From NCBI GenBank assembly GCA_903855945.1, contig CAIOAK010000205.1, positions 1 through 64,000 on the forward strand: a stretch of DNA of 64,000 nucleotides, written 5' to 3'. The stretch's first letter is position 1; each line of letters opens with the position of its first letter. The position numbers and the translations under genes were made by a program. Origin of the DNA: an uncultured Anaeromyxobacter sp. Lineage in GTDB: Bacteria; Myxococcota; Myxococcia; Myxococcales; Anaeromyxobacteraceae. The notes beneath the pieces are model-generated. The model made no database searches, had not been told where the DNA came from, and saw nothing but the letters and a program-made list of their open reading frames with translations. Below, in pieces: positions 10,665-63,875 of the stretch.

Positions 10665-11779
10665 CCTGCGCCCTTCCGGGCGGCCGCCCAGGCCGAGAGC
10701 ACCTGCCTCTCCCGCTCGCGCGAGATGCCGGCGCGCAGCTTGGCGCGCCGCTCCGCCGGGAGCCGGTTCCACCAGGCCAGCGTGTCCCGCGCCGTCTCGT
10801 CGAGGGGGCGGAAGCGGAGGCCGGCCGCGCGCGCGCGCGCGATCGAGACCTGCGACATCCCGCTCTCCGGACCGCCGGCCGGGATCCAGACCGGCATGTC
10901 GCCCCACGGCTCGACCTGTTCCTTCTCGAGGAAGGGAGCCGGGACCCAGGTGAGCGCGCCCTTCGGGCCGGAGGCGGGCTGGCAGGCCGCGAGCATCTCC
11001 CGCATCGTGGTCCGCGCCGCCGGACCCACCGCGTTGAAGATCCCGGTGGCGCGCCGCCCGGCCATCTCCACCATCCAGCCGCCCAGATCGCGGACGTCGA
11101 TCAACTGGATCGGGTCGTCCCCCGTGCCCGGCGCGAGCACCTCACCTCCCTCGGCGAGCCGGACCGGCCAGTAGGTGAAGCGGTCGGTCGGGTCGTCCGG
11201 TCCCACGATGAGGCCGGGGCGGACGACCAGCACCCGCCCGGGCATGGCGCCCTCGGCAGCCCTCTCGCAGGCGGCCTTGAGGGCGCCGTAATTCGCCCGG
11301 ATGTCCTCGGTTGCGGGGTCGGTGAGCTTCGCGATCTGGGCCCCCTCGTCCGAGCCCGGCGGGATCGACTCGTCGTAGACCGAGATGGTGGAGACGAAGA
11401 CGTACCGTTCCACCGACGGTGCGAGCAGTTCCGCCGACATGCGCACGATCCGCGGAACGTAACCGGAGGTGTCGATCACCACGTCCCAGCTCCGGCCGCG
11501 GAGCGCTTCCAGCTTCCCGTCCCGGTCCCCGTGGAGTTGCTCCACGTCGGTGAAGCGGCCCGGGTTGGTCTTGCCCCGGTTGAAGAGCGTGACCACGTCG
11601 CCCCGCGCGCCCGCCGCCTCGACGAGCGCCGGGCCGAGGAAGCTCGTGCCTCCGAGGATGAGGATCCGGGACGGCTTCGCCGGCGAGGCGTACGCCCCCG
11701 GCCCTTCCGCGCGCGGGGCAGCGCAGGCGGCCAGCGTCGCCAGGGAGGCCTGCAGGAAGTCGCGACGGGTGACGGCCAT
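10661..11779 (-). CDS. Tat-exported NAD-dependent epimerase/dehydratase-like protein
   Basis: 372 residues. The N-terminus has a twin-arginine motif (RRDFLQ) and a short hydrophobic stretch ending LAACAAP, possibly a lipobox. The Rossmann start GGTSFLG lies near 42, followed by a short-chain dehydrogenase/epimerase body (FVSTISVYDE, YGALKAACE as the YxxxK pair, RPGLIVGP). Members act on nucleotide sugars or isoflavone-like substrates; export of a cofactor-dependent enzyme by Tat is unusual but consistent with folded-protein export. Last gene of a minus-strand operon, 9 bases after the aldo/keto reductase. Confidence 0.82.
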   Translation of the reverse strand: MAVTRRDFLQASLATLAACAAPRAEGPGAYASPAKPSRILILGGTSFLGPALVEAAGARGDVVTLFNRGKTNPGRFTDVEQLHGDRDGKLEALRGRSWDVVIDTSGYVPRIVRMSAELLAPSVERYVFVSTISVYDESIPPGSDEGAQIAKLTDPATEDIRANYGALKAACERAAEGAMPGRVLVVRPGLIVGPDDPTDRFTYWPVRLAEGGEVLAPGTGDDPIQLIDVRDLGGWMVEMAGRRATGIFNAVGPAARTTMREMLAACQPASGPKGALTWVPAPFLEKEQVEPWGDMPVWIPAGGPESGMSQVSIARARAAGLRFRPLDETARDTLAWWNRLPAERRAKLRAGISRERERQVLSAWAAARKGAG

Positions 11780-54494: not shown

Positions 54495-55070
54495 CTACTT
54501 GCCGGCCAGGGACTTCACGAGCCCTTCGGCCTTGACCTTCACCTTCATGCCCTCGGTGATGGCCGTGGCGTAGTCGCCGGACTTCGCCAGCTCGGCGGCG
54601 GACTCCCAGTCCCTGGCGAGGCGGTCGATCCCCTGCCTGGCGGCGTCGACGGCGTCCTTGCCGACCCCGCGCGGGAGCTTCTTCGAGGCGGAGAGCTGGG
54701 CCACGCGATCCTTCAGGGCGGCGACCGCCTGATCGTAGTTCGACACCAGGACCTTGTAAGCCGCCATGAGCTGCTCCTTGCGGGCGGCGGCGGTGGCGAA
54801 GGCCTCCTTCACCTTGGCCGGAACCTCGCCCGCTGCGGCAAGCGCTCCCTTGAAGTCCTGCTTCGCGGCGAGTTCCTTCGCCTTGGCGAGGCTCGCCTGG
54901 GCCGCCTGGACGACGTCGGGCGCGTACCTCGCCGCGTCCCCCTTCACCGACTCCAGGGCCGCGGTGGCAGCTGCCATGGCGGCCTCGGCGGGAGCCTTGG
55001 CGGCGTCGGCGCAGGCGAGGACGAGGGAGAGGGGGATGACGGCCAGGGCGATGCGGAGATTTCTCGACAT
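54495..55070 (-). CDS. Lipoprotein with Ala/Lys-rich helical repeat
   Basis: 191 residues from the ATG at 55070 (AGGAG before it). Signal peptide with LVLAC (Cys about 20). The mature part is entirely helical: AAMAAATAALESVKGDAARYAPDVVQAAQASLAKAKELAAKQDFKGAL, then a charged coiled-coil with heptad-like A/L positions. Resembles surface Ala-rich lipoproteins; function unknown. A hairpin lies just upstream at 55120-55141. Confidence 0.7.
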   Translation of the reverse strand: MSRNLRIALAVIPLSLVLACADAAKAPAEAAMAAATAALESVKGDAARYAPDVVQAAQASLAKAKELAAKQDFKGALAAAGEVPAKVKEAFATAAARKEQLMAAYKVLVSNYDQAVAALKDRVAQLSASKKLPRGVGKDAVDAARQGIDRLARDWESAAELAKSGDYATAITEGMKVKVKAEGLVKSLAGK

Positions 55071-55119
55071 TCGTTCTGCTCCTCGGCGGGGGCGACGCAC
55101 GAAGGCGGCGCCAGGGTTT

Positions 55120-55141
55120 CGGGAGCGAATACCCGCTCCCG
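55120..55141 (-). terminator. Hairpin between OmpP1-side genes and the helical lipoprotein
   Basis: CGGGAGCG (55120-55127) and CGCTCCCG (55134-55141) form a perfect 8-base stem with a 6-base loop. On the minus strand it follows the OmpP1 gene and the small fragment, so it may terminate that transcript. No T-run follows. Confidence 0.4.
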
Positions 55142-55195
55142 GGCCCGGACGCCAGCCTTCGTTCACCCCGCCAGGGGCCTGGAGGCAGATGGCGC

Positions 55196-55294
55196 CTACT
55201 GCTTCGACACCTCGCCCCACACCACGTCCCGCAAGGCCGCCTCGATCTCGTCCGGCGCGCACTTGATGTTCATGAAGCTGTTCGCGCCCATCAT
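55196..55294 (-). pseudogene. Short fragment resembling the C-terminal end of a response-receiver domain
   Basis: A 32-codon frame just after the OmpP1 stop reads MMGANSFMNIKCAPDEIEAAL and then RDVVWGEV. The GA-x2-F-x3-K…P-[DE]-E-[IL]-x-x-A[LI] pattern with a closing GE is like the last beta strand and helix of REC domains of LuxR-type regulators, though one residue longer before the Lys. The rest of such a protein is absent, so it looks like a gene remnant; a genuine tiny peptide cannot be excluded. Confidence 0.3.
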
Positions 55295-55323: not shown

Positions 55324-56619
55324 CTAGAACTTGTAGGCGATGCCGGCGTCGAGGCCGACCTGGGTCATGGTCGTCGTGTAGGAGGCGATGCCCTGGCCGT
55401 AGGGACCCGGGTAGTCCGGGGTTCCGTACGGAGGATTGGCGTTGGAGCCGGTGATGCTCGACGAGGGAGCGTACATGCCTCCCACGTTGATGACGACGTG
55501 CTTGCCGAGGTTGAAGCCGGCACCGAGGGTGATGTGGTTCTCGGTCACGGCGGGGAAGGCGACGTTCTCGAAGGCCCGGGAGGCGTCGAGGGGGTTCTTG
55601 CCGTAGTTGTAGCCGGCGCGGATGGCGAGCCACTCGAGGGGCGTGACCTGCACGCCGATCTTGAAGACGAACTGGCTCGACCAGTTCATGTTCCAGGGCA
55701 TGGCGCCGCTCGAGTTCTGGGAGAAGGCGGGCTTGTCGGCGCCGTTGGTCGCGGACCAGTTGATCCACTCCACGTCGGCGGCGATGAGGAGCATGTCGAT
55801 GGGGCGGACCGAGGCTCCGACGGTGAGGACGCAGGGCTGGTTGAAGGTGAGCTTGTCGATGCCGCCGGGCAGCGGCGGGTAGGAGGCGCCGGCCGGGTTG
55901 GGGCGGACGCCGGTGTTGTATGCGAAGTCCTGGAAGAAGGAGGTGGTCTCGAAGGCGACGCCGATGGTGAGCATCTCGATGGGGGTGATCTTGACGCCGA
56001 CGGTGCCGCCGATGCCGAAGGCCCCCGCCGTGTCGTGCGTGGCCTGGCCGAAGGCGCTGGCCACGTTCCACTCGGTGGTGGCCCACATCGCGTTCACGGT
56101 GACGCCGAAGGAGAACATCTTGTTGAGCTTGTAGGCGATGCCGGGCGTGAAGCGCATCTGGGAGTAGCTCGTGAAGGTGGTGCTGGAGTAGAGGTTCTGG
56201 CCGTAGTCGACCCCCATGCCGGCGACGCCGTAGGCGCCGATGCCGAAGGTCCACTGGTCGTCGATGGGGATGAGGATGCCGAAGGCCGGGATGGGGGAGC
56301 CGCCGCGGCTGCTCTCCAGGGTCACCCCGGGCTGGTTGACGAGCATGTTGCCGTGGCCGGCGTCGATGCCGGAGGCGCTGTACTTCACGGTGGGCAGGAA
56401 GAAGGTGGCGCCGAAGTCGACCCGGCCTCCCAGCTCGGTGATGCCGGCGGGGTTGGACAGGATGCTCGCAGCGTCCAGCGTGGCTCCCACGCCCACGCCG
56501 CCCATCGAGTTCTGCACCGGCCCGAAGCCGATCATCCGCATTCCGTTGGTTGCATACGCAGGCGTTGCGGCGGTGACGAGCAGGGCAGCGCCAAGATAAG
56601 TCAGTTTGTGAAGTTTCAC
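55324..56619 (-). CDS. OmpP1/FadL-family outer-membrane transporter
   Basis: 431 residues from a GTG with GGAGG 6 bases before it. Signal peptide about 1-22 (ending AATPAYATNG); the mature N-terminus TNGMRMIGFGPVQNSMGGVGVGATLDAASILSNPAG is the FadL family hallmark (shown in part), forming the N-terminal hatch. Barrel strands follow and the chain closes on AYKF. FadL-type channels take up fatty acids or aromatic hydrocarbons. The gene is downstream of, and on the same strand as, the sigma-54 activator. Confidence 0.9.
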   Translation of the reverse strand: MKLHKLTYLGAALLVTAATPAYATNGMRMIGFGPVQNSMGGVGVGATLDAASILSNPAGITELGGRVDFGATFFLPTVKYSASGIDAGHGNMLVNQPGVTLESSRGGSPIPAFGILIPIDDQWTFGIGAYGVAGMGVDYGQNLYSSTTFTSYSQMRFTPGIAYKLNKMFSFGVTVNAMWATTEWNVASAFGQATHDTAGAFGIGGTVGVKITPIEMLTIGVAFETTSFFQDFAYNTGVRPNPAGASYPPLPGGIDKLTFNQPCVLTVGASVRPIDMLLIAADVEWINWSATNGADKPAFSQNSSGAMPWNMNWSSQFVFKIGVQVTPLEWLAIRAGYNYGKNPLDASRAFENVAFPAVTENHITLGAGFNLGKHVVINVGGMYAPSSSITGSNANPPYGTPDYPGPYGQGIASYTTTMTQVGLDAGIAYKF

Positions 56620-56727
56620 CGGGTACCTCCCGCTGGGGTTTCCAGGTGACAGTGCGCGTGCCATGCCGGAAACCGGGACCCTGCAAATCCACGAGGTTCC
56701 CCGCGACCGTGCCGGTGCAGCGACGAA

Positions 56728-56749
56728 ACGTCTCGCCACGGCGAGACGT
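56728..56749. terminator. 22-base palindrome between the activator and OmpP1 genes
   Basis: ACGTCTCGCC-AC-GGCGAGACGT is a perfect 10-base inverted repeat. Read on the minus strand it begins 27 bases after the activator stop and is followed by TTTCG, so it can act as a terminator. It also lies about 65-75 bases upstream of a TGGCACG-type -24 element (56663-56657) before the OmpP1 gene, a typical place for an activator site; the -12 there (CTGTC) is poor. Both readings stay open. Confidence 0.45.
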
Positions 56750-56776: not shown

Positions 56777-58180
56777 TCAGGCCAGGCTGGCCGCCCGCAT
56801 CCGGCGCCAGAGGGTGCTCCGGCTCACCCCCAGGGAGCGAGCCGTGGCAAGTCGATTCCACCGGTTCTGCTCCAGCGCCGCGCGAAGCTCGGCGTCGTCC
56901 ACCGGCCCCAGTCCGAAACCCTTCCCCGTATCGGTCGGAAGGACGGGAAGATCTCCCGCCAGCATCGTCGGGGGGATGATCTCCGGAGGGAGGTCCTCCG
57001 GTTGCAGGGTCTGCCCCTGGCAGACCGTGGCCGCGAACTCGAGCGCATTCTCCAGCTCGCGGACGTTTCCTGGCCACTCGTGGGACATGAGCACGCGGAT
57101 GGTCTCCGGGGACAGGCGCAGCGCGCGCCCGGTCCGCGTTCCCACGCGTGACAGGAGCAGGCGCGCCATCGGCTCGATGTCCTCGCGGCGACTGCGCAGC
57201 GGGGGAAGCTCGATCGGGAATACCCGGAGGCGGTAGTAGAGGTCCTCCCGGAAGCGGCCATCGGCCACGAGCCGTCGCAGGTTGCGGTTGGTGGCCGCGA
57301 TGATCCGCGAGTTCGTGCGACGGGTCTGGCTGTCCCCGACCCGCTCGTAGGTGTGCTCCTGGAGCACGCGGAGCAGCTTCACCTGGAGGTGGAGGGGGAC
57401 GTCGCCCACCTCGTCGAGGAAGAGGGTGCCGTCCTCGGAAGCCTCGAACCGGCCCGCGCGGTCCCGGACGGCGCCGGTGAATGCACCTCGGACGTGACCG
57501 AAGAGCTCGCTCTCGAGCAACTCGCCCGGCAGGGCAGCTGCGTTCACCGCGATGAACGGCCCCGACTTGCGAGGGGAGTGGGAGTGGATGATCCGTGCCA
57601 CGACCTCCTTGCCCGTCCCGCTCTCGCCGGTCACGAGCACGGTTGACTCGCTGTGCTGGAGGACGTCGATCATCCGGAACACGCGCGCCATCGCCGGGGA
57701 GCGGGCGATGAGCCCGAATCCAGCGATGGGGCCGCTCGCCTCCACCGTGGACTCGTCGGCGGGGCGGAGGACGACGAGGAAGGCGGCGGCCGGGTCGCAC
57801 ACGCCGAACTTGTCGTGGAGCAGGGGAGCCGCGGAGACCGACATGAGGCGGGCCGGTCCCGAGGGGACGTTCAGCACCGCGCGCCATCCCTCCCGCTTCT
57901 CCCCGGCGAGGAGCGCCTGGCGTAGCGGCCCGTCCGGGCCGAAGAGCTCGGAGCCGAGGAGCGACTCGATGGGCATCCCCTGGGCGCGGGAGGCCGTCTC
58001 GAGCCCCAGGAGGGAGCCGAGAAGTTCCGACGCATAGCGGATCCGGAAGTCCGCATCGAGCGCCATGCAGACCCGGCCGAGCGAGCCGAAGGCGGTGTTC
58101 ACCGCCGCGAAGGCCCGTTCCTGGTCGCTCATGCCGGCGGCGCACGAGGCGGTCTCTTCTTCAGGCGAGCGCGACGTCAT
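56777..58180 (-). CDS. Sigma-54-dependent transcriptional activator (PAS-AAA-Fis)
   Basis: 467 residues. A PAS-like sensor (about 20-150), then the AAA+ central domain with Walker A GESGTGKE, the GAFTGA loop for sigma-54 contact, Walker [11 protein letters not shown], the sensor R-finger [13 protein letters not shown], and a Fis-type HTH at the end ([17 protein letters not shown]). No REC domain, so it is a one-component sensor. It diverges from the octahaem cytochrome operon, which has a GG-N10-GC promoter, so it probably activates that operon in response to a signal sensed by the PAS domain. Confidence 0.92.
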
Positions 58181-58285: not shown

Positions 58286-58301
58286 AGGCACGCCCCGCGC
58301 A
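58286..58301 (+). promoter_or_regulatory. Candidate sigma-54 promoter of the octahaem cytochrome operon
   Basis: aGGCACG-N4-GCGCA has GG (58287-58288) and GC (58299-58300) exactly 10 bases apart. The -24 half is good; the -12 half (GCGC instead of TTGC) is weak. Transcription would start near 58312, about 43 bases before the GTG start. The adjacent sigma-54 activator gene supports the call. Confidence 0.45.
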
Positions 58302-58354: not shown

Positions 58355-59773
58355 GTGACCAAAAGGCATCTCCTCCTCGGAATGGTGTTCCTCTCAGCGG
58401 TCGTGGCCGTGGTCCTCGCGGCCATCGTGCTGCAGCGCCCGGCGCCGCCATCCCCGGCAGCCCCCGCCTTCACGCGGCGGCCGCGCCCCCACTTCGATCA
58501 CGCGCCCGTGACCCCGGCGAAGTTCGACAGTCCCCAGGCGGTGACCCGCTCCTGCCTCGGCTGCCACCCCGACGCGGCACACGTGATGAAGAGTTCCCAC
58601 TGGCTCTGGCTCGGTGAGGAGGTCGCGATCCCGGGTCACGACGGGAAGACCCGCATCGGCAAGAGGAACCTCCTCAACAACTTCTGCATCGCGAACCGGG
58701 GAAACGAGAAGTCCTGCACGAAGTGCCACGCCGGCTACGGCTGGGCCGACGACACGTTCGACTTCAAGAACGCCGAGAACGTGGACTGCCTGGTCTGCCA
58801 CGAGCGGAGCGGGAACTACGTGAAGGGGACGTACGGGATCCCGACCAAGGAGAGCGACCTCGTCGCCGCGGCCAGGTCGGTCGGGACGCCCCAGCGGGAG
58901 AACTGCCTCGGCTGCCACGCCTACGGAGGCGGAGGGCAGGGGGTGAAGCACGGAGACATCGACTCGTCCCTCGCCCACCCGTTCGAGGAGGAGGACGTGC
59001 ACATCGGGCGTCACGGCTTCCTCTGCGTGGACTGCCACCGGGCGCCCGATCACCAGATCCAGGGGAGGGCGTTCTCGGTCAGCGTGGAGGATTCGCACGG
59101 CCTGGCCTGCACCGACTGCCACGCGGGGCACCGGCACGGCGACGAGCGCATCGACACGCACGTGAAGTCGGTCGCCTGCCAGACCTGCCACATCCCGGAG
59201 TTCGCAGGGAAGCTGCCCACCAAGGCCTGGTGGGACTGGAGCCAGGCCGGCGATGCGTCCCGGAAGGAGGACCCGCACGGCTACCTCAAGATCAAGGGCG
59301 AGTTCACCTACGCGCAGGGAGCCGCGCCCGAGTACCGCTGGTTCAACGGGACCGTGGGACGCTACCTGCTCGGGGACAAGATCGACCCGACGAAGGTCAC
59401 ACAGCTCAATCCGCTGCTCGGCGGGATCGAAGATCCCAGGTCGAAGATCTGGCCCTTCAAGATCCACCGGGGCAAGCAGCCGTACGACGCCGGTTTCAAC
59501 TACCTCTTCCCGCCTGTCACCGGTGGTCCGGGCGGCTACTGGACCACCTTCGACTGGGACAGCGCATTCCGGCTCGGCTCCAAGGCCTCCAACATCCCCT
59601 ACAGCGGCAAGTACGGTTTCGCGCCCACCGAGATGTACTGGCCGCTCTCCCACATGGTGTCCACGAAGGAGAAGGCGCTGGCCTGCACGGACTGCCATGG
59701 CGACCGCTCCCGGATGGACTGGCAGGCGCTGGGCTATGCCGGCGACCCCATCAAGACCGGAGGCCGCCGATGA
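58355..59773 (+). CDS. Octahaem c-type cytochrome, tetrathionate reductase (OTR) family
   Basis: 472 residues from a GTG. An N-terminal membrane helix/signal anchor (about 8-27) precedes eight CxxCH haem sites (CLGCH, CTKCH, CLVCH, CLGCH, CVDCH, CTDCH, CQTCH, CTDCH). NNFCIANRGNEKSCTKCHAGYGW, in which a Cys pair flanks the active-site region, is the OTR family hallmark. OTR reduces tetrathionate, and also nitrite and hydroxylamine in vitro, in the periplasm. The gene heads an operon (4-base overlap with the next) behind a sigma-54 promoter. Confidence 0.88.
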   Translation: MTKRHLLLGMVFLSAVVAVVLAAIVLQRPAPPSPAAPAFTRRPRPHFDHAPVTPAKFDSPQAVTRSCLGCHPDAAHVMKSSHWLWLGEEVAIPGHDGKTRIGKRNLLNNFCIANRGNEKSCTKCHAGYGWADDTFDFKNAENVDCLVCHERSGNYVKGTYGIPTKESDLVAAARSVGTPQRENCLGCHAYGGGGQGVKHGDIDSSLAHPFEEEDVHIGRHGFLCVDCHRAPDHQIQGRAFSVSVEDSHGLACTDCHAGHRHGDERIDTHVKSVACQTCHIPEFAGKLPTKAWWDWSQAGDASRKEDPHGYLKIKGEFTYAQGAAPEYRWFNGTVGRYLLGDKIDPTKVTQLNPLLGGIEDPRSKIWPFKIHRGKQPYDAGFNYLFPPVTGGPGGYWTTFDWDSAFRLGSKASNIPYSGKYGFAPTEMYWPLSHMVSTKEKALACTDCHGDRSRMDWQALGYAGDPIKTGGRR

Positions 59774-62019
59774 TCCGCGCCCTTGCAGCTGCCATCCTCG
59801 TCGCCGCCGGGCCTGCGATGGCCCAGCAGCCGGTGAACCCGATCCACCCGCTCTTCGCGCCCCTGGACGCAGCGGGCCGGAAGGTCCGCTCCGCCGCGGA
59901 GATGAGCGCCGAGAAGACCTGCGGCGCCTGCCACGACGCGCTCTACATCGGCGCCCATACGGACCACAAGGCGCCCCGCTCCGCGGCCACCTGCGTGCAG
60001 TGCCACGTGGGCGGCGGTCGCCTCGAGATCCTGCCCGAGCGGCTGGACGCCGAGGGAAAGCTCCGCAGGGAGTCGATCCGCATCGGGACGCCTCGCGCCG
60101 CGAACTGCGCCGTCTGCCACGGGATCGTCTCGGACGGGGCGGCTCCGCTGGCGGTTCCGGCCGCGCTCGAGGCAGCTCCGGCGGCCGGGCGCACCTGGTC
60201 GCTCACCCTCGGAGAGGGCGCCATCGTGGCCCCGCAGCGGATGAACGAGTCGTTCCTGGACCTGGAGGGGAAGGACGCCCTCGTGGGTCCATGGGACGTG
60301 CATGCCGCGAAGCTGGTGGACTGCGTCGCCTGCCACTACGCGGCCAACAGCCCGGCGCGAACCGACGGGAAGCAGGGCTCGCTGCGCTACCTCACTGCGG
60401 ACCCGCGGCGGCAGACCCAGGCCGAGTTCCTGGTCCGCCCCGACCACCGGCTCGCCGAGCAGGACTGCCGCGCCTGTCACGATCCCATGAAGGCACACGC
60501 CTTCCTTCCGTACCGGGAGCGGCACATGGAGGTGCTCTCCTGCACCGCCTGCCATGCGGCCGGTTCGGTGGGGCCTGCGGCCGAGATGGTGGACGCCTCG
60601 GTGGTCACCGCGCGGGGCGGGCCGGCGATCCACTTCCGGAACGTCGTGCGGGGGGCGGACGACACGATGAACACGGCCACCATCCGGCGACTCCGTCCGC
60701 TCCTCCTCGAGCGCGTCGAGGCGGACGGTGTGCGACGCGTGGCCCCGGTGAACCTGCTCAGCCGTTACCGCTGGATCTCCAGCGCCGACGGCGCGGACGT
60801 GCCGTTCGAGACGGTGACGCGCGCCTGGCGCGTCGGCGACGGCTACGCACCGGAGGTCATCGCCGCCTTCGACGCCGACCGGAACGGCCAGCTCGACCCT
60901 GCCGAGCTCCGGCTCGACACGCCGGCGAGGACCGAGCTCATCGCCGCCCGGCTCCGGGCGCTTGGCGTGGACGGGCCAGCGGTTGTGGGAACGCTCGAGG
61001 CCCACCCCATCGCGCACGGGATCTCCACCCGGGACCGGGCCCTGCGCGACTGCGCGGCGTGCCACTCCGAGGATTCCCGCCTCTCCGACGAGTACGTCGT
61101 CGCCTCCTTCCTCCCCGGCGGTTCGCCTCCGCGCCCCCCGGAGGGATCGCGCGTTGCGCTCGCCGGCCTCATCGCTCCGTCGCAGGCGGGCGGGGTTGTC
61201 CTGAAGCGAGATCGCGAAGGCGCGCCCGGGGCCCTCTTCGTCCTGGGGCACTCCCGTCAGGCCTGGACGAACCGGGTAGGATTCCTCGTCTTCCTCGCGG
61301 TGCTCCTCGGCGCGATCGTCCACGGCGGCCTGCGCATCGCCTTCCGGAAGCGGCGGGCGCACGCCGACACGCACGAGGGGGCGCGGGAATACGTTTTCGG
61401 TCGCTACGAGCGGCTCTGGCACTGGACGATGGCGGCGAGCGGCATCCTGCTCATCGTCACCGGCCTCCAGATCCACGGCACCGGCACCTGGAGCCTGATG
61501 AGCCTCTCCACGGCGGTGGCCGTGCACAACGCCTTCGCCGTCGTGCTGATCCTGAACGGCTTCCTGGCGCTCTTCTACCACCTGACCACGGCCGCCATCC
61601 GGAACTTCCTGCCGCACCCCCAGGGCTTCCTGAAGGGTGTCTTCGAGCACATGACCTACCAGGCCCGGGGGATCTTCTACGGGGAGTCTCACCCGAGGAA
61701 CGAGGCCGGACAGAAGCTCAATCCGATGCAGCAGGTCACCTACCTGGCGCTCCTCAACGTGCTCTTCCCGCTCCAGATCGTCACCGGGACGATCATCTGG
61801 CTGGTGGGGCGCCATCCGTCCGTGGCGGCCGCCGTGAACGGCCTGAGCTGGGTGGCGCCGGTGCACAACCTCGGCGCGTGGCTCTTCCTCACCTTCTTCG
61901 TCCTGCACGTCTACCTGGTCTCGACGGGGCGCACCCCCACCGACCATCTCAAGTCCATGATCACCGGCTACCAGCACGTCGACGGCGATGTCGCGACGCC
62001 GGAAGGAGCTGAGCGATGA
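59770..62019 (+). CDS. Heptahaem cytochrome c / cytochrome b561-type membrane fusion protein
   Basis: 749 residues. Signal peptide (about 1-18), then a periplasmic part with seven CxxCH sites (CGACH, CVQCH, CAVCH, CVACH, CRACH, CTACH, CAACH) and an EF-hand-like loop (DADRNGQLDPAE, about residue 370). The C-terminal third has five hydrophobic helices with His ligands for two b haems in LWHWTMA, VHNAFAVVLILNGFLALFYH and VHNLGAWLFLTFFVLHVY. It would oxidise quinol in the membrane and deliver electrons directly to the octahaem reductase encoded just upstream. Overlaps both neighbours by 4 bases. Confidence 0.87.
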   Translation: MIRALAAAILVAAGPAMAQQPVNPIHPLFAPLDAAGRKVRSAAEMSAEKTCGACHDALYIGAHTDHKAPRSAATCVQCHVGGGRLEILPERLDAEGKLRRESIRIGTPRAANCAVCHGIVSDGAAPLAVPAALEAAPAAGRTWSLTLGEGAIVAPQRMNESFLDLEGKDALVGPWDVHAAKLVDCVACHYAANSPARTDGKQGSLRYLTADPRRQTQAEFLVRPDHRLAEQDCRACHDPMKAHAFLPYRERHMEVLSCTACHAAGSVGPAAEMVDASVVTARGGPAIHFRNVVRGADDTMNTATIRRLRPLLLERVEADGVRRVAPVNLLSRYRWISSADGADVPFETVTRAWRVGDGYAPEVIAAFDADRNGQLDPAELRLDTPARTELIAARLRALGVDGPAVVGTLEAHPIAHGISTRDRALRDCAACHSEDSRLSDEYVVASFLPGGSPPRPPEGSRVALAGLIAPSQAGGVVLKRDREGAPGALFVLGHSRQAWTNRVGFLVFLAVLLGAIVHGGLRIAFRKRRAHADTHEGAREYVFGRYERLWHWTMAASGILLIVTGLQIHGTGTWSLMSLSTAVAVHNAFAVVLILNGFLALFYHLTTAAIRNFLPHPQGFLKGVFEHMTYQARGIFYGESHPRNEAGQKLNPMQQVTYLALLNVLFPLQIVTGTIIWLVGRHPSVAAAVNGLSWVAPVHNLGAWLFLTFFVLHVYLVSTGRTPTDHLKSMITGYQHVDGDVATPEGAER

Positions 62020-62540
62020 GCGCCAGTCGTGAGCCCCGTCCCTACGTCAACCCGTTCGTCGCCGGCACGCTGCTCGGCGTGGTGCTCTTTCTGAGCATCT
62101 TCATCACCGGAGGTGGACTGGGCGCCTCGGCGGGGATGAGCCGTGTCCAGACCGGATTCCTCGATCTCCTGGCCCCGGCCCACGTGGACCGGGTGGCCTA
62201 CTTCGCCGAGATGGCCGGCGGGTCGAGGAACCCCTGGCTCCACTACTCCATCTACATGCTCGTCGGCACCGTCCTCGGTGGCTTCGTGTCAGGCCTCTGG
62301 AACCGGCGCGTGAAGCTGGAGACGCGCAAGGGGCCGCGCATCTCGGTGCACGCACGCTGGGGGCTGGCGCTGCTCGGTGGCCTCATCATGGGCTACGGCG
62401 CGCGCATGGCCCGCGGCTGCACATCGGGGCAGGCGCTCTCCGGGGGCGCGGTGCTCTCGGTGGGCAGCTGGGCCTTCGCGATGGCGATCTTCGCGAGCGC
62501 CTACGCGGTGGCCTGGTTCTTCCGCCGGCTCTGGACCTGA
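62016..62540 (+). CDS. YeeE/YedE (TsuA-like) transporter, N-terminal-type half
   Basis: 174 residues with four hydrophobic helices. VNPFVAGTLLGVVLFLSIFITGGGLGASAG at the start and RWGLALLGGLIMGYGARMARGCTSGQALSGGAVLSVGSW near the end (shown in part) match the YeeE/YedE family; RGCTSG carries a conserved substrate Cys. In TsuA, members import thiosulfate through a chain of Cys residues. This is one half of the transporter, the other half being encoded next. Overlaps the cytochrome b fusion gene by 4 bases. Confidence 0.83.
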   Translation: MSASREPRPYVNPFVAGTLLGVVLFLSIFITGGGLGASAGMSRVQTGFLDLLAPAHVDRVAYFAEMAGGSRNPWLHYSIYMLVGTVLGGFVSGLWNRRVKLETRKGPRISVHARWGLALLGGLIMGYGARMARGCTSGQALSGGAVLSVGSWAFAMAIFASAYAVAWFFRRLWT

Positions 62541-62558
62541 AACCGGGAGGCAATCCAC

Positions 62559-63875
62559 ATGGCACCCTTCGACCTCACATCCCTCGGTTTCATCCCCTAC
62601 GCGCTGGTGTTCGGCGCCATCGGCTTCGGCTTCGGCGCCGCGCTCGAGATGGGCGGCTTCGGCGACACGCGCAAGCTGGCCGGGCAGTTCTACTTCCAGG
62701 ACATGACCGTCCTGAAGGTCATGTTCACCGGGATCATCGTCGCGGCGGTGCTCGTGGCGCTGGCCACCTCCTACGGCCTCCTCGACATGAACCGCGTCTT
62801 CGTGAACCCCACCTACCTCTGGCCGGGGATCGTGGGCGGTCTCATCATGGGCGTCGGTTTCGTCATCGGCGGCTTCTGCCCGGGGACTTCGCTGGTGGCC
62901 GCCTCCACGCTCAAGGTGGACGGGATGTTCTTCCTGCTCGGCGCGCTCGGGGGCGTCTGGCTCTTCGGCGAGACCGTGTCGAGCTTCCAGGGCTTCTGGC
63001 TCTCCTCGTACATGGGACGCTTCACGCTCCCCGAGTGGCTCGGCCTGCCGGTCGGCGTCACGGTGCTGCTCGTGGTGCTGATGGCCCTCCTCCTCTTCTG
63101 GGCCGGCGACCTCGCGCAGCAGGTCTTCGGCCAGAAGAGGCCCTGGGCCGAGGTCCGGCGCGTCCCGGGCCCCCGCAGCCTCGCCTTCGCGGGCACGCTG
63201 GTGGCGGCGAGCATGGTCCTCGTGGTCCACGGCCAGCCCGACCCGGAGTCCAAGTTCGCGAGGATGGGGCCCGAGCTCCGGAGGTCGGTGGAGGAACGGG
63301 CGATCTTCGTCGATCCCGCCGAGGTGGTGGCGCTGCGCAAGGACATCGGGGTCCAGGTCGCGATCCTCGACCTGCGGGACGAGCGGGACTTCAACCTCTT
63401 CCACGTCGGCGGCTCGCGACGCGCCAGCCTCTCCGACCTGGAGTCCCCGGAGCGGTTGAAGCTACTCGTGGATCAGCCGCCGACCACGGTCACCTTCGTG
63501 GTGGGCAGCGGCGAGGCCGGCGCGCTGACCGCATGGAGGCGACTCACCGCGCTGGGCGTGCCCAACCTCTACGTCGTCGAGGGGGGCATCAATCGCTGGC
63601 TGGAACGATACCCGGTCGACGCCTGCGTCGCGGAGCGGGTGGGGAGGGCCGACGCGAAGGACGTTCCGGCCTGGCGATTCCTCTACGCCACCGGGAGCAG
63701 CCAGCCGGCGGCCTGGCCGGAGCTGGAGGCCTCCCGTTCGTTCCGCTCGCCCTGTGGCGAGGTCGCGTCCGCGGAGCACGGGGGCGGCGTCCACGCCCGT
63801 TCCTGGCCGGCCGCGACCTACACGAAGCGGGTGAAGCTGAAGAGCAAGGCTGCGGTGAAGGGCGGGTGCGGCTAG
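62559..63875 (+). CDS. YeeE/YedE transporter second half fused to an inactive rhodanese domain
   Basis: 438 residues. About 1-210 are six membrane helices of the YeeE type, with GFGFGAALEMGGFGDTRKLAGQFYFQDMTVLKVMFTGI and the conserved Cys motif IGGFCPGTSLVAAS. Residues about 245-360 resemble a rhodanese fold (VAILDLRDERDFNLFHVGGSRRASL, then NLYVVEGGINRW), but the active-site loop reads VVGSGEAGALTAW: the catalytic Cys is missing. The C-terminus is Lys-rich with a terminal Cys (GGCG). It probably binds, without transferring, sulfur or the transported anion. The stop shares CTAG with the convergent gene. Confidence 0.82.
   Translation: MAPFDLTSLGFIPYALVFGAIGFGFGAALEMGGFGDTRKLAGQFYFQDMTVLKVMFTGIIVAAVLVALATSYGLLDMNRVFVNPTYLWPGIVGGLIMGVGFVIGGFCPGTSLVAASTLKVDGMFFLLGALGGVWLFGETVSSFQGFWLSSYMGRFTLPEWLGLPVGVTVLLVVLMALLLFWAGDLAQQVFGQKRPWAEVRRVPGPRSLAFAGTLVAASMVLVVHGQPDPESKFARMGPELRRSVEERAIFVDPAEVVALRKDIGVQVAILDLRDERDFNLFHVGGSRRASLSDLESPERLKLLVDQPPTTVTFVVGSGEAGALTAWRRLTALGVPNLYVVEGGINRWLERYPVDACVAERVGRADAKDVPAWRFLYATGSSQPAAWPELEASRSFRSPCGEVASAEHGGGVHARSWPAATYTKRVKLKSKAAVKGGCG

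What the first reader, a model, noticed from the sequence alone, without database searches (positions are those of the whole stretch)
58355..63875. Inducible sulfur-oxyanion unit: OTR octahaem + heptahaem/cyt b fusion + split YeeE + dead rhodanese
Four genes overlap or nearly touch: a periplasmic octahaem OTR-type reductase, a fusion that joins seven c haems to a di-haem b membrane module, and two halves of a TsuA-like transporter. The arrangement predicts quinol-to-periplasm electron flow to reduce tetrathionate (or a related compound) coupled to uptake of the product. I do not know of a described system with this exact set.
Basis: partly seen in the sequence, partly recalled or inferred. Interest (0 to 1): 0.75.

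Follow-up and report, generated by a model that had tools for sequence, protein, structure and literature searches.

The report
Sulfur-respiration operon with transporter-tethered cysteine arm
A widespread but seemingly undescribed four-gene bacterial unit links an octahaem reductase to a membrane electron supply and to a two-part sulfur transporter that ends in a cysteine tail, which suggests that bacteria breathe a sulfur compound and import the product in one machine.

Summary
OTR (TIGR04315, 8 CxxCH), a heptahaem/cytochrome b fusion (HCB), and a two-gene YeeE pair (YA; YB with a Cys-less rhodanese-like domain) lie at 58355-63875 with two ATGA overlaps and an 18-base gap. A divergent sigma-54 activator faces them, and a GG-N10-GC promoter element is kept in 9 of 9 relatives. 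All 19 named loci with a full-length HCB (Myxococcota, Spirochaetes, Acidobacteria, Aminicenantes, Oligoflexales, Deltaproteobacteria) carry the same four genes in the same order. The split YeeE itself is known (PmpAB-type). The domain is predicted periplasmic. Most likely mechanism: quinol -> cyt b -> heptahaem wire -> OTR, reductive cleavage of polythionate or sulfane sulfur, capture on the Cys arm, import through the split YeeE. Context supports a sulfur role; substrate, direction and arm chemistry are inferred. Selenite/tellurite is the main rival substrate. I found no description of the cassette in the papers I could search.

The parts
58355..59773 (+). OTR: octahaem tetrathionate-reductase-family cytochrome c, 472 aa, N-terminal signal/anchor (hydrophobic residues 7-25); Cys111 and Lys198 align with 1SP3 Cys64 and Lys153
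59770..62019 (+). HCB: heptahaem c domain (OTR-related, 7 CxxCH plus 7 other invariant His) fused to a PhsC/FdnI/HyaC-like cytochrome b; EF-hand-like loop at residues 368-380
62016..62540 (+). YA: C-terminal half of a YeeE/TsuA-type transporter (PmpA-like), Cys135 in RGCTSG
62559..63875 (+). YB: N-terminal half of a YeeE-type transporter (PmpB-like, Cys107 in GGFCPG), extra TM helix, Cys-less rhodanese-like domain, C-terminal tail KGGCG (Cys437)
63252..63605 (+). rhodanese-like domain of YB (residues about 232-349), loop without Cys
63837..63872 (+). basic C-terminal tail ending in GGCG (proposed sulfur-carrier arm)
58287..58301 (+). sigma-54-type element GGCACGCCCCGCGCA (GG-N10-GC), 53 bases upstream of the OTR start codon
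56777..58180 (-). REG: divergent sigma-54 enhancer-binding activator with an N-terminal sensor region (conserved Cys in RVCMALD and GVCDP)

Best explanation
A respiratory sulfur module. Quinol is oxidised by the HCB cytochrome b; electrons pass through HCB's seven c haems (an OTR-related wire) to the octahaem OTR in the periplasm; OTR reductively cleaves an S-S bond in a polythionate such as tetrathionate, or in another sulfane-sulfur species. The product (thiosulfate or sulfane sulfur) is held on the C-terminal Cys of the periplasmic arm of YB and handed to the YA/YB channel for import. In this lineage a divergent sigma-54 activator switches the operon on. Shown: gene content, order, conservation, domain identities, conserved Cys/Lys/His, promoter element. 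Inferred: substrate, direction of electron flow, loading of the arm, transport.
For: Same four genes in the same order in 19 of 19 named full-length-HCB loci. In a 147-row OTR tree the window clade has 42 rows, 40 with the YeeE pair; the other 2 end 2 and 200 bases after OTR at contig edges. OTR keeps the residues equivalent to Lys153 and Cys64 in 40 of 40 clade-1 rows and the eight haem motifs in 97-100% of them. HCB's periplasmic part has 14 invariant His = 7 CxxCH + 7 others, consistent with an all bis-His wire; it is OTR-related by profile (98.0%) and weakly by fold (1SP3 E 5.5e-4; FdnI 1KQF_C target TM 0.67). YA and YB keep the Cys equivalent to TsuA Cys293 and Cys91. Cys in the last three residues in 44 of 44 complete rhodanese-bearing proteins, against 13 of 5492 other ORFs of 90 aa or more with this tail motif and 0 of 8 rhodaneses near other OTRs. 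Arm predicted periplasmic by charge. OTR-cyt b loci without the split pair sometimes have full-length YeeE (4 of 58), SoxY (1), PDO/SQR/Blh-like genes. Papers (passages): T. dismutans otr beside a cyt b gene (PMC4911364); otr beside soxY/soxZ in lucinid symbionts (PMC11237559); otr induced 36-fold by tetrathionate (PMC8528874, section 17).
Against: No biochemistry on any member. OTR also reduces nitrite and hydroxylamine in vitro, and Shewanella-type OTR, the nearest biochemically known relative, has no YeeE, cyt b or arm nearby (L105, L107, L118). Four clade-1 loci (L163, L165-L167) lack any detected cyt b. Most OTR-cyt b loci (46 of 58) show none of the sulfur genes I looked for. The ArsR protein tested from another lineage does not place its Cys where SqrR does (SqrR residue recalled). 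Arm function is by analogy to SoxY; no SoxY model matches YB.
Confidence: 0.5

Rival explanations
1. The unit reduces selenite or tellurite rather than sulfur oxyanions; the YeeE pair and Cys arm handle reduced selenium.
For: YA's best NCBIfam match is the selenium protein YedE/FdhT (40.4 bits, cut-off 350). Related YA-YB cassettes lie beside NrfD genes and, in L240, an ExtM-like cytochrome (selenite/tellurite operon, 175.1 bits, cut-off 800). The Geobacter ext cluster also joins a rhodanese, c cytochromes and a cyt b (PMC5877670, passages).
Against: All these scores are far below cut-off; a TsuA model matches YA almost equally (35.8 bits); OTR's neighbours elsewhere include sulfane-sulfur genes.
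Confidence: 0.12
2. The electron flow runs the other way: OTR oxidises thiosulfate or arm-bound sulfane sulfur and HCB passes electrons to quinone.
For: FdnI/HyaC-type cyt b, the closest folds, feed quinone in their known complexes (recalled). SoxY-type arms serve oxidation. OTR sits near SQR/PDO/SoxY genes in some loci.
Against: The tetrathionate/thiosulfate couple is +198 mV (PMC8528874, section 17), above menaquinone and ubiquinone (recalled), so thiosulfate-to-tetrathionate oxidation cannot drive quinone reduction well; otr is induced by added tetrathionate in anoxic sediment (same paper).
Confidence: 0.18
3. A nitrite/hydroxylamine detoxification or ammonification system; the YeeE pair is a bystander.
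For: S. oneidensis OTR reduces nitrite and hydroxylamine (reported in passages of PMC4484225).
Against: The YeeE pair is present at all 40 clade-1 rows of the tree whose downstream sequence is held; the tail Cys and TsuA-type Cys are conserved; a bystander would not be.
Confidence: 0.06
4. A sulfane-sulfur detoxification and sulfur-assimilation unit, not growth-supporting respiration.
For: YeeE/TsuA proteins serve assimilation in E. coli (PMC11582611, passages); ArsR-type repressor genes lie upstream in 6 of the 19 named loci (L039-L044).
Against: A quinol-linked 15-haem chain is a costly tool for assimilation; the window lineage uses a sigma-54 activator.
Confidence: 0.14

Closest known systems
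Octahaem tetrathionate reductase of Shewanella oneidensis (PDB 1SP3)
   Same: Eight CxxCH; residues equivalent to Lys153 and Cys64; strong sequence match
   Different: Nearest sampled relatives L105/L107 have no cyt b, YeeE or arm nearby; window OTR sits in a dedicated four-gene operon
OTR plus adjacent cytochrome b in Thermosulfurimonas dismutans (TDIS_1882/1883; PMC4911364, passages)
   Same: OTR paired with a membrane cyt b
   Different: No heptahaem fusion, YeeE pair or arm mentioned in the passages
PmpA/PmpB split YeeE pair and TsuA (PMC11582611, passages)
   Same: C-half and N-half as two genes; Cys equivalent to TsuA Cys293 and Cys91
   Different: YB is much longer: extra TM, rhodanese-like domain and GGCG tail; coupled to OTR
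SoxYZ carrier and SoxT importer (PMC11582611, passages)
   Same: Works alike if the model holds: C-terminal GGC(GG) arm presents sulfur to a YeeE-type importer
   Different: Arm is fused to the importer through a rhodanese-like domain; no SoxY homology found
Geobacter CbcL-type multihaem c / cytochrome b fusions (recalled, not tested)
   Same: Multihaem c domain joined to a di-haem b module
   Different: Different partners; HCB's c domain is OTR-related
Geobacter extHIJKLMNOPQS selenite/tellurite cluster (PMC5877670, passages)
   Same: Rhodanese-like protein with multihaem c and b cytochromes
   Different: No OTR and no YeeE mentioned in the passages; Rieske protein, porin and selenoprotein present
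YTD cluster of sulfur disproportionators (PMC8528874 section 17; PMC13047784 passages)
   Same: YedE/YeeE permease for sulfur trafficking
   Different: Partners are TusA and DsrE-like proteins, not a periplasmic cytochrome

Membership tests
OTR family (TIGR04315) | Score above curated cut-off; eight CxxCH | tested here: met
   520.7 bits against 375; 8 motifs
OTR family (TIGR04315) | Lys ligand to the active-site haem (1SP3 Lys153, number recalled) | tested here: met
   Lys198 aligned; Lys in 40 of 40 clade-1 rows
OTR family (TIGR04315) | Tetrathionate reductase activity | not testable with these tools
   no assay
YeeE/YedE split pair (PmpAB) | Two genes matching the C-half and N-half of Sulf_transp, one conserved Cys each | tested here: met
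   Pfam positions 177-308 and 3-192; RGCTSG and GGFCPG
TsuA thiosulfate transporter (equivalog) | NCBIfam score above cut-off; full length | tested here: not met
   YA 35.8 and 18.8 bits against 400 and 645; no TsuA match for YB
Rhodanese (active sulfurtransferase) | Rhodanese fold | tested here: met
   Pfam 39.4 bits; Foldseek target TM up to 0.78
Rhodanese (active sulfurtransferase) | Catalytic Cys in the active-site loop | tested here: not met
   no Cys in 36 of 36 scored segments; Val faces the Cys of 6MXV in the alignment
SoxY carrier | Homology to SoxY | tested here: not met
   no SoxY match for YB in Pfam or NCBIfam
SoxY carrier | C-terminal GGC(GG) Cys arm | tested here: met
   Cys in the last three residues in 44 of 44 complete proteins; works like, not a member
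SqrR/BigR persulfide sensor (ArsR gene of other lineages) | Two Cys at the SqrR positions (recalled) | tested here: not met
   L042 regulator aligns to SqrR (E 1.8e-10) but its LC-type Cys is offset by three residues; one protein tested
Sigma-54 activated operon | AAA+ sigma-54 activator with Fis HTH; GG-N10-GC promoter | tested here: met
   (9 of 9 upstream regions, read by eye)
CbcL-type quinol oxidase | Homology of the c domain to CbcL | not tested
   recalled comparison only

The most novel reading that the evidence does not exclude
OTR's natural substrate in this clade is not free tetrathionate but sulfur bound to a protein arm: a transporter-tethered, Cys-less rhodanese domain with a C-terminal GGC tail picks up (thio)sulfonate or sulfane sulfur, swings it into the OTR active site for quinol-driven reduction, and passes the product into the YeeE channel. 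The same arm-plus-YeeE unit is reused with other respiratory enzymes (NrfD-type, heptahaem OTR-like), making it a general module.
Probability: 0.25. Interest if true: 0.85.

Novelty: new variant of a known kind. Interest (0 to 1): 0.62.

Why it matters
OTR has a crystal structure and in-vitro activities, but its physiological role is unclear. Strict linkage of one whole OTR clade to a sulfur importer and a Cys arm gives genomic evidence for a sulfur role and names testable partners. The relocation of the rhodanese Cys to a C-terminal arm on a transporter would be a new way to couple periplasmic sulfur redox chemistry to import, in widespread bacteria including the isolate Anaeromyxobacter oryzae Red232.

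Tried and rejected
Persulfide sensing by SqrR-type ArsR: alignment of one upstream ArsR protein (L042) puts its Cys off the SqrR position, so I do not claim it; four of the six upstream ArsR genes have two Cys regions, two do not. TsuA equivalog: rejected on score. Two independent origins of the YeeE linkage: the FastTree tree needs 4 changes with the two contig-edge rows included, the ML tree 2, forced by starred branches, but the AU test does not reject one clade (difference 11.95 log units, p 0.259), so I claim one or two origins only. Chance tail: rejected by the 13 of 5492 background. FadL-like gene as part of the unit: a homologue was found beside REG in L019 but not in L017, so not claimed. 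The AlphaFold model of HCB is mediocre (pLDDT 69) and of YB moderate (72.3); only domain-level statements are used. The other YeeE pair of this genome (C206) lacks the arm and is not near an OTR.

Rows dropped before counts: one search read 160 loci (L002, L026-L044, L077-L216); 3 (L090, L091, L094) gave no OTR over 150 bits, leaving 157. The tree left out 11 of these 157 for OTR segments under 300 aa (L087, L088, L089, L134, L154-L159, L206) and added 1SP3. The ML tree used 84 rows chosen by me. In one search the incomplete L172 was left out, as were YB pieces cut by contig ends (L026, L031, L041). The fetched OTR contexts were most but not all hits; partial, low-scoring, duplicate or already held hits were not all fetched.

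Full report
What is there. The four genes are real, on the + strand, and tightly packed: OTR 58355-59773, HCB 59770-62019, YA 62016-62540, YB 62559-63875. OTR scores 520.7 bits on TIGR04315 (cut-off 375), matches 1SP3 at E 1.4e-134 and has eight CxxCH. HCB has seven CxxCH and a b-type module matching Ni_hydr_CYTB and, below cut-off, the PhsC-type model PRK15006. YA and YB are the C- and N-halves of a Sulf_transp protein; YB goes on into a rhodanese-like domain. The window is part of contig C205 of a 4.07 Mb genome whose same-family relatives include Anaeromyxobacter records.

Surroundings. A sigma-54 activator (56777-58180, -) is divergent. Nine of nine upstream regions that I compared by eye keep GG-N10-GC (window: GGCACGCCCCGCGCA, 58287-58301). 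The automatic pattern listed a hit in only two of them, at other places, so the count is a reading of the printed sequences, not a program's count. Two Cys of the sensor region (RVCMALD, GVCDP) are kept in the relatives printed. In other lineages (L039-L044) an ArsR-type gene lies upstream instead.

Distribution. HCB is full length in 10 of 60 genomes of the first search, own genome included, all in the same family. A scan of named genomes gave 22 loci, of which 19 (L026-L044) match most of HCB; all 19 have OTR-HCB-YA-YB in this order, YB being cut by the contig end in some. The other 3 (L045-L047) are weak partial matches. Record titles name Anaeromyxobacter, other Myxococcota, Spirochaetes, Oligoflexales, Acidobacteria, Deltaproteobacteria and Aminicenantes; most are metagenome bins, A. 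oryzae Red232 (L029) has a complete chromosome. Two further cassettes (L113, L130) come from the sample of the phylum of a Hyphomicrobium genome.

OTR contexts at large. I sampled TIGR04315 in five phylum samples: 195, 329, 398, 198 and 247 genomes, and read 160 loci, of which 157 had a scorable OTR. Of these 49 have the YeeE pair or part of it: 29 with fused HCB, 6 with separate heptahaem and cyt b, 1 with heptahaem only, 9 with cyt b only, 4 with no cyt b detected. 58 have cyt b without the pair and 50 have neither; these 50 include 2 contig-edge loci (L152, L169), Shewanella-type OTR and distant OTR-like cytochromes. In the OTR tree of 147 rows one clade of 42 rows holds 40 pair-linked OTRs, the other two ending at contig edges; it is placed beside 1SP3 and its relatives with weak support (83). 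A second group of 8 pair-linked OTRs lies among OTR-cyt b proteins. Whether the linkage arose once or twice is open.

Active site and wire. All 40 clade-1 OTRs keep the residues equivalent to 1SP3 Lys153 and Cys64 (numbers recalled). HCB's c domain aligns with OTR's middle haems by profile (probability 98.0%) and weakly by fold with 1SP3. Its periplasmic part has exactly 14 invariant His in 18 sequences, seven of them in CxxCH, so I infer bis-His haems and no catalysis. The b module resembles FdnI and HyaC.

The tail. No Cys occurs in any of 36 scored rhodanese segments, yet all 44 complete rhodanese-bearing proteins (31 fused YB, 4 separate, 9 of the second group, whose domain is called rhodanese from Pfam on one of them, L081, and by likeness) have a Cys in the last three residues, mostly GGC(G) after a basic stretch. 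Among other ORFs of the same loci 13 of 5492 carry such a tail, and 0 of 8 rhodaneses near other OTRs have Cys there. The loop before the last TM helix of YB is positive (5 K/R, 2 D/E), so the domain is predicted periplasmic. Related rhodanese-bearing proteins beside NrfD genes also end in EGC (L239-L241, L247, L249) or GGGCN (L253), and beside heptahaem OTR-like cytochromes small proteins with signal-like starts end in GGC (L248, L251, L252) (NrfD was confirmed by Pfam in L240 and L253 only).

Independent sulfur hints. Of the 58 OTR-cyt b loci without the pair, 12 have at least one of the sulfur genes sought nearby, including 4 full-length or partial YeeE hits, 1 SoxY, 2 persulfide-dioxygenase-like, 3 SQR/Blh-like and 7 rhodanese hits; 46 have none. 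One of the SQR/Blh hits (L120) is weak and one YeeE hit (L101) is a short ORF.

Literature. Searches in open-access PMC papers found no description of the cassette or the tail in what I read; subscription papers and preprints were not searched. Passages read: PMC4911364 (otr beside cyt b), PMC11582611 (PmpAB halves, Cys91/Cys293), PMC11237559 (otr beside soxY), PMC8528874 (section 17 and passages: otr up 36-fold with tetrathionate; couple at +198 mV), PMC4484225 (haem II catalytic; nitrite and hydroxylamine), PMC5877670 (ext cluster), PMC10376724, PMC12142623, PMC5317091, PMC5276818, PMC9040765, PMC13047784, PMC7096707, PMC8840924. The other papers in the listings were seen as listings only.

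Verdict. A conserved, apparently undescribed respiratory sulfur module built from known families, with one unexpected element, the Cys arm. The direction and substrate remain to be shown by experiment.

Noticed in passing
L248:1107-1412, L251:1023-1328, L252:2140-2454: Small proteins (101-104 aa) with signal-like starts ending in AGGC/PGGC, no Pfam match (two tested), next to a heptahaem OTR-like cytochrome and a YA/YB-type gene.
   Followed up: partly
L239, L240, L241, L247, L249, L253: YA/YB-type genes beside NrfD-type membrane proteins (Pfam run on L240 and L253), rhodanese-bearing proteins with EGC or GGGCN tails; L240 also beside an ExtM-like cytochrome.
   Followed up: partly
G000:C206:13445-14421 (L221): A second split YeeE pair in the same genome without rhodanese domain or arm, not near cytochromes.
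   Followed up: partly
L083, L086, L197-L205, L215, L216: OTR domains in longer proteins with 12-14 CxxCH, forming their own branch, with no YeeE pair nearby.
   Followed up: no
window 60871-60909 (HCB residues 368-380): EF-hand-like loop DADRNGQLDPAEL; the first Asp and the Glu are invariant in 18 HCB sequences; possible Ca site.
   Followed up: no
L108:4992-6230 and 10672-11160: Full-length YeeE just upstream of an OTR-cyt b pair and a SoxY (TIGR04488 over cut-off) downstream.
   Followed up: partly
window 55324-56739 (-) and 54495-55262 (-): FadL/TodX-type outer-membrane protein next to the regulator, and an ORF without Pfam match.
   Followed up: no
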